From: Hallella seregens ATCC 51272
GTDB taxonomy: Bacteria > Bacteroidota > Bacteroidia > Bacteroidales > Bacteroidaceae
Direction of reading: 5' to 3'
NCBI RefSeq assembly: GCF_000518545.1
Contig: NZ_KI912453.1
Span: 1 to 64,000, forward strand
DNA length: 64,000 nt
The notes under the pieces are model-generated. The model was not told the origin of the DNA, did no database searches, and was given only the letters and a program-made list of their open reading frames with translations. The translations under genes were made by a program, and so were the position numbers. Positions 4,372 to 42,107 of this stretch are shown one piece after another; positions within the stretch are counted from its first letter, which is position 1, and the number at the start of each line of letters is the position of its first letter.

Positions 4372-5655
4372 ATGCGCAAACAAAAGAACCATATCTTGAA
4401 ACTCACACACACGCTCCGCCCCTGCCTCATGGGGCTGCTGCTTGCCACGCTGCTGGGCTCGTGCAGCAGCGACAATTCCAAGGGCCGCCAGCCGGCCGCC
4501 GACACTTCTTCGCAACATACTCTGCCCGTCGATCCGGCCCTGCGCCGCCGGCTGGCCGACCTGGCCGCCGCCCCGCGCCCGCAGGGCCGGCTGGGCTTCC
4601 ACGTCTACGACCTCACGGCCGACCGCCCCGTCTACGGGCTGAACGAGCGCAAGGCCCTGCCCTCGGCCTCGTGCCTCAAGTTGCTCAGCGGCGTGGCCGG
4701 CCTGCACCTGCTGGGCACGCGCCACCTCTATGCCACCTCCATCTACACGCGCGGACAGATCGTGGGCGACACGCTGCGCGGCGACGTGACGTTCAGGGCC
4801 GGCCTCGACCCGCAGCTCAACGGCCCCGACCTCGGCCAGTTTGCCGCCGCCCTGCGCCGCAAGGGCATCCGCCGCATCGGCGGCCGGCTGCTGCTCGACC
4901 TGCAACTGCACGACCCCGTGCGCAGCGAGGCCCACTGGTACCCGTGGGATCTGAGTTTCTCGCACTACGGACTGCTCTACAAAGGGGCGCCGCGCGTGCA
5001 GAAAGAGCTCACGGCCGCCCTGCGCGCACGGGGCGTCAGCGTGGCCGACAGCCAGGTGGCGCTGGGCCGCACGCCGCGCGGGTCGCACTGCATCTTCCGC
5101 TTCTACCGCTCCGTGGACCGCGTTACAGAGCGCATGTGGAAGCACAGTTCCAACACCCAAGCCACGGCCCTGCTCTACACCATCGGCCATCGCGCCGACC
5201 CCGGGGCCGAGCCCACGGCGGCCGGCGTGGCCTACCTGCGCCGGTTCATGCGCGAGGAGCTGGGACTGCGCGACAGTGCACTCGTCGTGCACGACGGCTG
5301 CGGCCTCTGCACCCACAACCGGCTCTCGCCCGAAGCCCTCACCACCGTGCTGCGCTACGCCTACCGCCACAGGCCCATCTACCGGCTGCTGCTGGCCCAA
5401 CTCTCCATCGCGGGCGTGGACGGCACGCTGCGCCGCGAGCTGGCCGGGCCGAAGACGCGCGGCAAAATCCGCGCCAAGACCGGCACCCTCTCCCACCCCT
5501 ACGGCATCAGCTCGCTGGCCGGATACTGCCGGGGCAGCAACGGCCACCTGCTGGCGTTCGCCATTATGGACAGCGAGATGTCGGTTCTCGACGCCCGCGT
5601 GCTGCAGCGCAAGCTGGGCGAAGCCCTCGTTGCCCGCCCCGAACCCGGCCGCTGA
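4372..5655 (+). CDS. dacB: D-alanyl-D-alanine carboxypeptidase/endopeptidase (PBP4 family) lipoprotein
   Basis: Cleaves peptidoglycan stem peptides in the periplasm (S13 family). The 427-residue product begins with a charged N-terminus and a lipobox, GLLLATLLGSC, so it is probably a lipoprotein. Penicillin-binding motifs occur in order: SxxK in ASCLKLLSG near residue 100, SxN in KHSSNTQATAL, and KTG in IRAKTGTLSHPYG near the end. The inserted domain between SxxK and SxN is typical of PBP4. The frame is open far upstream (to 3211), but that part is antisense to ugd; start 4372 is chosen from the signal peptide and the TAACTTTG box at 4350. Family A repeats follow the stop. Confidence 0.9.
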   Translation: MRKQKNHILKLTHTLRPCLMGLLLATLLGSCSSDNSKGRQPAADTSSQHTLPVDPALRRRLADLAAAPRPQGRLGFHVYDLTADRPVYGLNERKALPSASCLKLLSGVAGLHLLGTRHLYATSIYTRGQIVGDTLRGDVTFRAGLDPQLNGPDLGQFAAALRRKGIRRIGGRLLLDLQLHDPVRSEAHWYPWDLSFSHYGLLYKGAPRVQKELTAALRARGVSVADSQVALGRTPRGSHCIFRFYRSVDRVTERMWKHSSNTQATALLYTIGHRADPGAEPTAAGVAYLRRFMREELGLRDSALVVHDGCGLCTHNRLSPEALTTVLRYAYRHRPIYRLLLAQLSIAGVDGTLRRELAGPKTRGKIRAKTGTLSHPYGISSLAGYCRGSNGHLLAFAIMDSEMSVLDARVLQRKLGEALVARPEPGR

Positions 5656-39401: not shown

Positions 39402-40277
39402 TTATCGTGTGAAAGGCAGATAGCCGCCGCATGGTGTGTCTTCGCAAACAAGGTGGTCAAGGATGCATTCCCGGAGGTCGGGAATGTGCCTGACAAGGTT
39501 GTTTCTGGCCTCCAGCATGTCTATTTCCTCACGTCTTGCCCTGGACATCTGGCAGAACTCTTCCTCCTGCTCTATGCCCGCAAACCGTCGTCCGCAGAGA
39601 TTGGCAGCGATGCCCGTGGTGGAACTGCCGCTGAAAGGGTCAAGTACCCAGTCGCCGGGCTGGGTGGATGCCAGGACGATGCGCGTGAGCAGGCTCAGCG
39701 GTTTCTGGGTAGGATGCTTGCCCTGCGACTTTTCCCACCGGCCGATGGCCGGGAGCCGCCACACATCTGTCATCTGTTTGTCGCCGTTAATATGCTTCAT
39801 CAGTTCGTAGTTGAACCGATGCGGCTTCTTGGGCCACTTGCGTGCCCACACGATGAACTCCGTGGAATGGGTGAAAAAGCGGCATGAGATGTTGACTGGA
39901 GGATTGGTCTTTTGCCACGTTACCACATTCAGAATCTTGTAGCCAAGAGCGGTCAGACTGTTGGCCACGGAGAAGATATTGTGGTACGTCCCGCTAATCC
40001 AGATGGTGCCGTTGTCCGTGAGTTTGTCGCGGCAGAGCCGCAGCCACTCCATGTTGAAAGCCGTCATCTCTTCGGGGGTGCGGCCTTTGTCCCAGTCGCC
40101 CTTGTCCACGCACACCACTTTTCCGCTCTGCAACGAGATGCCCCCGTTGGAGAGAAAGTAGGGCGGGTCGGCAAAAATCATGTCGAATTTAAAGTTGAAC
40201 GCCTTGAGCAATTCAAGGCTGTCGCCTTGGGCCAAGAGAAAATCGCTGGTCCGGGATTTGTAGAATGGGACTATCAT
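39402..40277 (-). CDS. dpnA: DpnA-type DNA adenine methyltransferase (beta class)
   Basis: A second GATC methylase of the DpnII system. In this 291-residue protein motif IV comes first (DMIFADPPYFLSNGGISLQS) and the SAM-binding motif I last (WVLDPFSGSSTTGIAANLCG), the beta-class order. Between them HNIFSVANSLTALGYKILN, WQKTNPPVNISCRFFTHSTE and GKHPTQKP follow pneumococcal DpnA closely. DpnA can methylate single-stranded DNA and protects incoming transforming DNA in Streptococcus; that role here is inference. It is the last gene of the dpnM-dpnB-dpnA unit, 35 nt after the endonuclease stop. The C-terminal tail (about 265-291) is longer than in the pneumococcal enzyme. Confidence 0.92.
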   Translation of the reverse strand: MIVPFYKSRTSDFLLAQGDSLELLKAFNFKFDMIFADPPYFLSNGGISLQSGKVVCVDKGDWDKGRTPEEMTAFNMEWLRLCRDKLTDNGTIWISGTYHNIFSVANSLTALGYKILNVVTWQKTNPPVNISCRFFTHSTEFIVWARKWPKKPHRFNYELMKHINGDKQMTDVWRLPAIGRWEKSQGKHPTQKPLSLLTRIVLASTQPGDWVLDPFSGSSTTGIAANLCGRRFAGIEQEEEFCQMSRARREEIDMLEARNNLVRHIPDLRECILDHLVCEDTPCGGYLPFTR

Positions 40278-40312
40278 AAACGTGTGCAGGCTGGTGTTGT
40301 GGCTGTGTGCCG

Positions 40313-41146
40313 CTATGGGTTGGACGTGGAGAGCTGGCGAATGAAGTCGGCCATGTTGGTCAGATTGTAGATGTGTGGAATGATGCCGTAGGCCTCCTGC
40401 AACTTGTTTCGGGCCGACTTCCAGCCCACACCGTCCGTAATCCAGACAAACTCGAAGCCCGGCACGGCATTGATCTTGGGTGCAATGTCAGAATAGGAAC
40501 GGGCTACTTCGTTCAGTTTGGATCCGCCACTGCTGTAGAAGTTTACCTCGATGAGATAGGTCACAGCCTGGGTTTCGACCACGAAGTCGAATCGTTTCTC
40601 GTCGTCGCCCAGTGCTTTGGTGATGTCGGGCCACTCGCTGGAGTAGACCTCCTGGCGGAAGTTGATGTGGTTTTGTCCTAACAAATCGGCCACCCTCCGT
40701 TCCATCACGTGCCCGCTTCTGTTCTTGCGGGCGTTGGTGTCAAGGCCTGTTTCGATGCCGAACACATAGTCCACGAGGTCCTTAATCACCCCGTCCATGA
40801 AGATACGGGCCAGTCCGGTGCCTTCCAGAAATGCCATAACACCGTCCACGCTCTCAAAGAAACGTTCGACAACCACGCACTGTCCCCGTGCATCCAGCAC
40901 AACTTTCCCGCCTCCGCTGCGCACGGCTATCAGGATGTCCATGACGGCAAAGGCCGACTTGTCGCGCTTCCAGATGGTCTCAACGCTCTTGCGAAGATCC
41001 TTGCTGCCGATGAGACTGTTCAGCATGCAGAGGCTCAATTTGATGTCGTCAACGTTGCGGGCAATCTTCTTGAAGTCGCAGAAGAAGTCCAGCGTCTGGT
41101 TAGTCTCTTGAAGCTGAGACATGAAAAGAGAAAAATCCTTGGCCAT
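40313..41146 (-). CDS. dpnB: Type II restriction endonuclease, DpnII/MboI family (GATC)
   Basis: Cuts unmethylated GATC. The 277-residue protein matches the DpnII plan: an N-terminal helical region (TLDFFCDFKKIARNVDDIKL, LNSLIGSKDLRKSVETIWK), the linker VFGIETGLDTNARKNRSGHV, and the catalytic part KRFDFVVETQAVTYLIEVNF with D and ExN forming the PD-(D/E)XK-like core, then YSSGGSKLNEVARSYSDI and EFVWITDGVGWKSARNKLQE. ATG 41146 is 1 nt after the dpnM stop; an in-frame ATG at 41170 would overlap dpnM and is less likely. It sits between the two methylase genes. Confidence 0.93.
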   Translation of the reverse strand: MAKDFSLFMSQLQETNQTLDFFCDFKKIARNVDDIKLSLCMLNSLIGSKDLRKSVETIWKRDKSAFAVMDILIAVRSGGGKVVLDARGQCVVVERFFESVDGVMAFLEGTGLARIFMDGVIKDLVDYVFGIETGLDTNARKNRSGHVMERRVADLLGQNHINFRQEVYSSEWPDITKALGDDEKRFDFVVETQAVTYLIEVNFYSSGGSKLNEVARSYSDIAPKINAVPGFEFVWITDGVGWKSARNKLQEAYGIIPHIYNLTNMADFIRQLSTSNP

Positions 41147-41147
41147 A

Positions 41148-42107
41148 TTATGCAATGTGATTGGAGACATAGGGAGACGGCCGTCCGAAGGATTCTCCGT
41201 GGGCCATAGCTCTTGTCTGCCGGTAATTGTGGACCAGTATCTCCGTCAGTCTGCCCCTCTTGCTGGGATTGGCATTGACACTGCGCGCGGCCCATACCCT
41301 TTCAATCTGGTATCGGGCGTACAGGATGTCGAAGAAGCCGGTGGTTTCGTCCTGCCCTTTGCTGTCCGAATTGCTGAGCATGAAGTGGAATCCGGCAACG
41401 TCCACCTTGTCGCAGAATAGCTTGAGGCGTATCTGGGCGTCGTCGTTGAATGCTTCTTTGGTGTAGTCGTTGAAGCTGGACGTGTCGCTCAACGGCCGGT
41501 AAGGAGGGTCGAAATAGAACAGCGTGTGTCCTTGGGCAGCCTCGAAAGTTTGCTCAAAGTCGGTATTGCATATCTCCACACGTTGCAAAAGCTGGCTGTC
41601 TTCCCGGATGGTGCCGGCATCGCAGATGGTGGGATGCGCATAGCGGCCGAATGGAACGTTGAAGGCCCCCGACTTGTTCACGCGGTACAGACCGTTGAAG
41701 CAGGTATGGTTCAGGAAGATGAAGCATGCCGTGTTGGCTACGGGAGAGAGGCCTTTTTGGTTGTATCGTGCCCGGATGTCCAGGTAATAGGCCTTGCGTT
41801 CGGCCTCGTCTGGCAAGGCCAGATAGGCCGTTTCGATGGCTTGCAGGGCGGCAATCAGGGCTTCCGGCTCGTCGCGCACGGTGCAATAGCATGTGGAAAG
41901 ATCGGGGTTGATGTCGTTCACGATGGCGCGCCCGATATTGGGATAGCGTTGTAGCATATAGAAAAGCATGGCCCCGCCCCCCACGAAGGGCTCGATGTAC
42001 GTCACGTCGGCCCAGCGGTCAAAGCCCGCCGGAAGCAGCTTGTCCAGTTGCCCGATGAGCTGTCCCTTGCCGCCCACCCACTTGATAAAGGGTTTCGCTT
42101 TTGCCAT
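41148..42107 (-). CDS. dpnM: Dam/DpnM-type GATC adenine methyltransferase (alpha class)
   Basis: Protects double-stranded GATC sites from the cognate endonuclease. The 319-residue protein has motif X KPFIKWVGGKGQLIGQLDKL, SAM motif I YIEPFVGGGAMLFYMLQRY, the target-recognition region FLNHTCFNGLYRVNKSGAFN, and motif IV FYFDPPYRPLSDTSSF, the alpha-class order. First gene of the unit, with TATTTTTG at 42148-42155 as promoter. The block is visibly less GC-rich than its neighbours, consistent with horizontal transfer. Confidence 0.94.
   Translation of the reverse strand: MAKAKPFIKWVGGKGQLIGQLDKLLPAGFDRWADVTYIEPFVGGGAMLFYMLQRYPNIGRAIVNDINPDLSTCYCTVRDEPEALIAALQAIETAYLALPDEAERKAYYLDIRARYNQKGLSPVANTACFIFLNHTCFNGLYRVNKSGAFNVPFGRYAHPTICDAGTIREDSQLLQRVEICNTDFEQTFEAAQGHTLFYFDPPYRPLSDTSSFNDYTKEAFNDDAQIRLKLFCDKVDVAGFHFMLSNSDSKGQDETTGFFDILYARYQIERVWAARSVNANPSKRGRLTEILVHNYRQTRAMAHGESFGRPSPYVSNHIA

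What the first reader, a model, noticed from the sequence alone, without database searches (positions are those of the whole stretch)
39402..42107. DpnII-type system with unusual gene order M-R-M and a DpnA-like second methylase
Three genes encode DpnM, DpnII endonuclease and DpnA homologues. In pneumococcus the order is dpnM-dpnA-dpnB; here the endonuclease lies between the methylases. DpnA-type enzymes methylate single-stranded DNA entering by transformation, so its retention hints that this bacterium takes up DNA. The block is less GC-rich than its neighbours.
Basis: partly seen in the sequence, partly recalled or inferred. Interest (0 to 1): 0.6.

Follow-up and report, generated by a model that had tools for sequence, protein, structure and literature searches.

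The report
MboI-type GATC restriction locus, empty slot
The three genes look like a standard bacterial DNA-cutting defence system that recognises GATC, in the gene order usual among this bacterium's relatives; many of those relatives, but not this one, carry an extra, changeable gene between the cutter and the second protective enzyme, often one that looks like another DNA cutter.

Summary
The three genes are real and lie as described, on the minus strand: M1 (41148-42107, Dam/DpnM family), R (40313-41170, or from 41146; DpnII family) and M2 (39402-40277, nearer the LlaDCHI/DpnA-type second methylase than CcrM). The order M-R-M is not unusual: 37 of 38 same-family loci with all three genes on one strand have it, the window included; 1 has M-M-R. 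The block's GC is low beside its neighbours but ordinary for the genome. Competence is not shown: ComEC and DprA are present but near-universal, the pilus ATPase was not found, and M2 goes with the locus in 42 of 46 stretches. GATC is depleted threefold. So the window holds a new member of a known kind (MboI-type). More interesting is the same locus in relatives: in 16 of 40 the R-M2 junction carries a further same-strand gene, nuclease-like in 10 (PD-(D/E)XK-like, MutH-like, DUF6997, HNH, second DpnII) and unknown in 6. Content changes repeatedly on the R tree, though near relatives tend to share it. Some of these genes also stand beside the same methylases where no intact DpnII was found. 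The window's slot is empty (35 bp).

The parts
41148..42107 (-). M1: DpnM/Dam-type (D12 class) GATC adenine-N6 methyltransferase, 319 aa
   Evidence: PF02086 2e-54, TIGR00571 1e-76; best PDB match 2dpm DpnM 4e-49
40313..41170 (-). R: DpnII/MboI-type restriction endonuclease; longest frame 285 aa from ATG 41170; the ATG at 41146 (277 aa), 1 bp after the M1 stop, is the likelier start
   Evidence: PF04556 9e-99; D195, E208 and N210 invariant in the 12 aligned sequences
40278..40312 (-). R-M2 junction, 35 bp: the place where 16 of 40 family loci carry an extra same-strand gene; empty here
39402..40277 (-). M2: DpnA/LlaDCHI-M2-type beta-class adenine methyltransferase, 291 aa
   Evidence: PF01555 9e-57; 54% identical to LlaDCHI M2; separated from CcrM-type proteins by a 100/100 branch

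Best explanation
It is a complete MboI/DpnII-type (Type IIP) restriction-modification operon for GATC. M1 keeps chromosomal GATC sites N6-adenine methylated, R cuts incoming DNA whose GATC sites are unmethylated, and M2 is the second GATC methylase of this family, which probably adds methylation on substrates that M1 serves poorly (single-stranded or newly made DNA). Shown here: gene identity, order, kinship of M2 to the LlaDCHI second methylase, GATC depletion. Inferred from the families: GATC specificity, cutting, and the division of labour of the two methylases.
For: Family matches for all three genes; D195, E208 and N210 of R (taken as catalytic from recall of PD-(D/E)XK enzymes) invariant in 12 aligned sequences, LlaDCHI among them; the same three-gene, same-strand arrangement with overlapping or short junctions in many relatives; GATC observed/expected 0.32 in the window (64 against 199) and 0.33 in five other 20-kb stretches (106 against 318), 0.31 in one RM-plus congener, against 0.64 and 0.59 in two RM-minus congeners (the latter two have only 36-37% GC, so this is suggestive only). 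In Prevotella intermedia the methylase of an M-R pair assigned to this kind was shown to give Gm6ATC (passages of PMC5608340).
Against: No methylation or cleavage data. GTAC and CTAG are also depleted (0.49 and 0.01 in the window), so GATC avoidance is not unique. A P. intermedia second methylase assigned to GATC gave no protection of plasmid DNA in E. coli (passage of PMC5608340), so M2 activity is not a given.
Confidence: 0.88

Rival explanations
1. M2 works like pneumococcal DpnA: it methylates single strands taken up by transformation, and the host is naturally competent.
For: Kinship of M2 to LlaDCHI M2; DpnA methylates ssDNA and protects transforming DNA (passages of PMC3573125); ComEC and DprA in the genome, and HHH_3 proteins; P. 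gingivalis, of the same order by recall, is competent through ComEA/ComEC (passages of PMC11532111).
Against: ComEC and DprA ring in 10 and 11 of 14 control genomes; no T2SSE ATPase found; M2 goes with the locus in 42 of 46 family stretches; no competence-type regulation could be recognised.
Confidence: 0.2
2. M2 is a second dsDNA methylase (backup or hemimethylated-site enzyme) with no link to DNA uptake.
For: M2 is conserved more strongly than R or M1 (54% against 31% and 38% to LlaDCHI) across hosts not known to me as competent; its sister family CcrM acts on hemimethylated dsDNA through an opened bubble (title and start of abstract of PMC6787082, listing).
Against: The P. intermedia second methylase gave no dsDNA protection in E. 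coli (passage).
Confidence: 0.4
3. The block is a recent foreign island, as its lower GC suggests.
For: 8th GC percentile within the window; GC3 0.73 against 0.80-0.90 in five neighbouring genes; of 21 other same-genus genomes listed only 5 have a DpnII match.
Against: 34th percentile of five other stretches of the same genome; the two tRNA genes of the window lie over 20 kb away; GATC depletion outside the block fits long residence. Integrases and flanking repeats were not searched for. No empty site could be compared: the three congeners with a close homologue of the 42322-44109 gene show no homologue of the other neighbours tested.
Confidence: 0.3

Closest known systems
MboI system of Moraxella bovis (mboA-mboB-mboC; recalled, paper not held)
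   Same: two methylases flanking a GATC endonuclease of the DpnII/MboI family; same order
   Different: host phylum; sequences not compared here, no MboI record was fetched
LlaDCHI of Lactococcus plasmid pSRQ700 (L042; that this plasmid carries LlaDCHI is recalled)
   Same: same three gene families; M2 54%, M1 38%, R 31% identical
   Different: order M1-M2-R
DpnII of Streptococcus pneumoniae
   Same: same three families; M1's best PDB match is DpnM
   Different: dpnM-dpnA-dpnB order; dpnA has a competence-induced promoter there (passages of PMC3573125), and nothing comparable was recognised here
P. intermedia Pin25611FII and Pin17FORF7650P (passages of PMC5608340)
   Same: GATC systems in a related genus; in strain 17F M1 and a second GATC-assigned methylase stand where R was lost
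   Different: 25611F has no M2, 17F has no R; no extra gene is described in the passages read

Membership tests
DpnII/MboI (PF04556) Type IIP system | endonuclease of the DpnII family with its conserved residues | tested here: met
   PF04556 E 9e-99; invariant D195, E208, N210 in 12 aligned sequences
DpnII/MboI (PF04556) Type IIP system | linked Dam/DpnM-type methylase | tested here: met
   TIGR00571 over cut-off, 2dpm
DpnII/MboI (PF04556) Type IIP system | host GATC is N6-methylated, unmethylated GATC is cut | not testable with these tools
   only indirect: GATC depletion
DpnA-type second methylase | sequence kinship with the second methylase of M1-M2-R systems rather than CcrM | tested here: met
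   54% to LlaDCHI M2, 53% to staphylococcal and 46% to lactobacillar second methylases, 44% or less to CcrM-like plasmid hits; tree split 100/100; PDLC03371 is the best PADLOC model for window M2, LlaDCHI M2 and S. lugdunensis M2, but third for two CcrM-type proteins. Against: in the PDB search CcrM ranks above the chain named DpnA
DpnA-type second methylase | acts on single-stranded GATC | not testable with these tools
   none
DpnA-type second methylase | competence-regulated expression | not tested
   a sigma-70 consensus scan finds 1 site against 1.4 in shuffles; no competence promoter of Bacteroidota is known to me
CcrM | NCBIfam equivalog cut-off | tested here: not met
   215.7 bits against a cut-off of 830
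Pneumococcal DpnII operon | order M1-M2-R | tested here: not met
   order M1-R-M2

The most novel reading that the evidence does not exclude
In Bacteroidota the M1 + M2 GATC methylases form a constant frame, and the space between R and M2 is a slot into which unrelated nucleases are repeatedly inserted, stacked or exchanged. Because GATC methylation protects any site that contains GATC, a new nuclease needs no methylase of its own, and R itself is dispensable. The window's locus is the bare, empty-slot form of this modular system.
Probability: 0.5. Interest if true: 0.6.

Novelty: new member of a known kind. Interest (0 to 1): 0.4.

Why it matters
For the window itself little changes: a GATC system in the usual order. 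The slot, if it holds up, would offer a simple rule for finding new GATC-protected nucleases (look between DpnII and its second methylase) and an explanation of how restriction systems gain a second cutter without a second methylase. It would also make the role of DpnA-type methylases outside competent streptococci easier to test, since M2 persists in loci where no intact DpnII gene was found.

Tried and rejected
Unusual order: rejected by counts. Foreign island by GC: not supported against other stretches of the genome. Empty-site comparison: the neighbour gene 42322-44109 matches in 7 of 39 other same-genus genomes, closely (59-66%) in 3; those 3 stretches hold no homologue of the other neighbours tested nor of M1, R or M2, so nothing can be said. 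Type IV pilus as a test of competence: T2SSE not found, but this does not refute competence in Bacteroidota. RNA families in the window at gathering score: two tRNAs only. Promoters 1 against 1.4 in shuffles, terminators 5 against 3.9. Slot family C: model good (mean pLDDT 86.6), best PDB match E 0.027; its function is unknown and it may not be a nuclease. Families C, D and H: no Pfam or PADLOC match at E 0.01 in the members searched, in PHROGs one weak match for C (E 0.0017) and none for D or H. Family A: PD-(D/E)XK-like by an invariant P-D...E-V-K and by structural neighbours that are mostly nucleases, best Z 7.0 with BstEII, but the best Foldseek E is 0.0095 and belongs to a viral polymerase with an endonuclease domain, and a Z under 8 can be a common arrangement. 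Literature: two searches aimed at such a slot (20 of 101 papers listed, 6 of 6 listed) showed nothing by title or start of abstract; these papers were not read for it, apart from passages of three of those. The MboI paper was not held; a search for M2.MboI caught MboII instead, as one of the papers showed; a last search did not find it.

Full report
WHAT IS THERE. The window is part of an assembly of 3.27 Mb in 58 contigs. The titled relatives of R at 70% identity or more are Bacteroidales, among them Prevotella dentasini, so the host probably belongs to the Prevotella/Bacteroidaceae group; its species is not known to me. On the minus strand lie M1 (42107-41148), R (41170 or 41146 to 40313) and M2 (40277-39402). 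Pfam, NCBIfam, PADLOC and PDB searches agree on a DpnM/Dam-type methylase, a DpnII-type endonuclease (Pfam and PADLOC only) and a beta-class methylase. No PDB chain matches R below E 0.6.

IS M2 A DPNA-TYPE ENZYME? In PDB the nearest is CcrM (E 1e-53), ahead of a chain named DpnA (5hek, E 2e-31; H. pylori M1.HpyAVI by recall), which by itself would point away from DpnA. Wider comparison points back: among plasmid records (search stopped at 5000) the best hits are the second methylases of GATC systems (LlaDCHI and a relative 54%, staphylococci 53%, lactobacilli 46%), with CcrM-like proteins (my label) at 44% or less; a Neisseria protein at 50% and a broken Campylobacter one at 56% also rank high and were not characterised. 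In a 36-row tree four CcrM-type proteins are split from all others by a 100/100 branch, and the four Bacillota second methylases lie on the other side, in a starred group with a viral row and L064; 14 of 33 inner branches are open. Holding the 31 rows that are neither CcrM-type nor the phage row together is not rejected (p-AU 0.47), which does not by itself show a clade. Single-strand activity is untested.

GENE ORDER. PF04556 was found in 45 of 301 same-family genomes, the window's own among them. I fetched 46 stretches around these matches (one genome, G270, gave two, one cut by a contig end and one broken; a third short fragment in it was not fetched). Of the 38 with all three genes on one strand, 37 are M1-R-M2 (one with two R copies) and 1 is M1-M2-R; of the other 8, three show M1-R only, three R-M2 only, one is a broken locus and one (L075) has its methylases, in pieces, on the other strand. 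In the 80 best loci from the genome collection 74 are M1-R-M2 and 6 lack M1 or M2 within the piece held; this set is the best 80 of at least 573, ranked by similarity to the window's R, and overlaps the first (12 near-identical R sequences were removed before the tree). In the ten plasmid or phage stretches fetched from the R searches (of 20 records with a match), M1-M2-R occurs in 4, M1-R with no M2 found in 4, a fused M1-R in 1, and 1 phage fragment is incomplete.

COMPETENCE. ComEC (PF03772, E 9e-59) and DprA (PF02481, E 2e-67) are present, as are HHH_3 proteins (six matches; one 383-aa frame has three and may be ComEA-like, my label); PF00437 is not found, while it rings in 14 of 14 controls.

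GATC. Observed/expected GATC by a second-order Markov estimate is 0.32 in the window, 0.33 in 100 kb elsewhere, 0.31 in RM-plus G233, 0.64 and 0.59 in RM-minus G005 and G150. Only two genomes of each kind were compared, 100 kb of each congener, and the RM-minus ones have 36-37% GC. GTAC and CTAG are depleted in the own genome as well.

THE SLOT. The distance from R to M2 in the 40 family stretches where M2 follows R on the same strand falls into two classes: 24 at 81 bp or less, one at 203 bp, 15 above 400 bp. Each of the 15 holds a same-strand ORF, or two, that fills the gap, and one of the 24 short ones has a second DpnII gene instead (L074). So 16 of 40 are occupied: 10 by a gene that is nuclease-like (family A 5, F 2, E 1, HNH 1, second DpnII 1) and 6 by one of unknown kind (C 3, D 2, H 1). 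One more locus (L073) has a gene between M1 and R. In the genome-collection set 27 of 76 exceed 400 bp, each with a same-strand ORF of at least 80 aa (in L113 and L175 it fills only part of the gap). From both sets and two viral loci, 56 same-strand ORFs (two antisense ones dropped) gave 50 distinct proteins in 11 clusters. Recognisable: MutH/Sau3AI-like (F, 3 proteins; PF02976 E 9e-21; Sau3AI E 1e-21 and MutH E 2e-17 in PDB), DUF6996/6997 with a PADLOC Type II restriction model (E, 3), a family of about 174 aa with an invariant PD...EVK and a PD-(D/E)XK-like model (A, 14), and a 383-aa protein with HSDR_N similarity below the cut-off in the M1-R position (G, 2). Unrecognised: C (9), D (5), H (2), the small B (9, counting one HNH protein, L089, that joined it), and three singletons, of which one is DndB-like. 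So 3 of 11 clusters look like nucleases, a fourth weakly, and a fifth through one member.

TURNOVER. On a 111-row R tree (quick method, long branches present) the slot content of 105 rows needs at least 35 changes over all states and 24 for occupied/empty (labels assigned by hand, truncated loci left out). Among the occupied loci alone family A changes 9 times, at least 6 by starred branches. Content is not free of descent: all groups together need 18 changes against 24.9 in shuffles, as low in 0 of 200. The window lies in a mixed neighbourhood with A and E carriers, inside a larger starred set that also holds F, G and H.

DO SLOT GENES SHARE THE GATC METHYLASES? Family A was found in 8 of 301 family genomes: six are among the DpnII-positive ones; in the other two it lies between M1 and M2 with R reduced to a short end piece (L254) or with no recognisable R (L255). 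In 3 of 395 genomes across the phylum it is near M2 in all three, with M1 in two, and R is found in none. In viral contigs 4 of 14 copies have M1, M2 or R of this type nearby, 6 lie near distant methylase relatives and 4 near none, so A is not tied to this system alone. Family E (PF22518) was found in 11 of 395 phylum genomes; of 12 stretches examined, 7 have a Dam-type M1 gene directly beside it, 5 (weak or partial E matches) do not, and none has a DpnII match. M2 accompanies E in only 1 of these 12 (L229), so the M1-E pair stands without M2. PF02976 was found in 6 of 390 phylum genomes; of the 6 stretches 1 has M2 nearby (L292), 4 have a nearby frame with a cytosine-methylase motif (a motif from recall), as Sau3AI systems do, and 1 neither. 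This last result, and the fact that Sau3AI is not blocked by adenine methylation (passage), speak against a simple rule that every slot nuclease is stopped by Gm6ATC.

HOW IT WORKS. For the window the best account is the ordinary one (confidence 0.88). For the slot, the proposal is that a standing GATC methylation makes any nuclease whose site contains GATC safe to acquire: the review PMC4081073 (passage) notes that M.MboI, M.DpnII or Dam protects the longer AlwI site as well. This is inference; it rests on neighbourhood, predicted fold and turnover, with no biochemical test and no comparison with other operons.

LITERATURE. Read as passages only: PMC3573125, PMC5608340, PMC4687069, PMC4190342, PMC4081073, PMC11532111, PMC8459023, PMC3990576, PMC10305163. 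Other papers were seen in search listings only. In P. intermedia 17F a published 1.85-kb region with a second GATC-assigned methylase replaces R (passage); whether it also holds a slot gene is not stated in the passages read.

Noticed in passing
L074, L111: Two tandem DpnII genes between M1 and M2 (M-R-R-M); the second R copy is 48-49% identical to the window's R, the first 72-73%.
   Followed up: partly
L257-L262, L229: DUF6996/DUF6997 genes lie directly beside a Dam-type methylase with no DpnII match: perhaps a two-gene restriction system of its own; whether it has been described was not searched.
   Followed up: partly
L038, L081, L089, L100, L107, L146, L147, L158: A conserved small (about 90 aa) protein (phrog_3941, unknown function) recurs at the R-M2 junction, alone or with another gene.
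   Followed up: no
L255, 1195-2730: M1 carries a long C-terminal extension of unknown function in a locus with no recognisable DpnII gene.
   Followed up: no
L047: Staphylococcal plasmid record with M1 and DpnII R in one reading frame.
   Followed up: no
L151, L174, L175, L177: The same M1-R-M2 arrangement in MAGs labelled Akkermansia, Spirochaetaceae and Treponema (M2 in two pieces in L174): transfer between phyla or mis-binned contigs.
   Followed up: no
G000:C2:176561-178359, C1:203978-204736, C1:237160-237744: Four further D12-class methylase matches in the own genome, two of them adjacent, one weak.
   Followed up: no
window, whole: CTAG is almost absent (1 against 99 expected) and GTAC is halved.
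   Followed up: no
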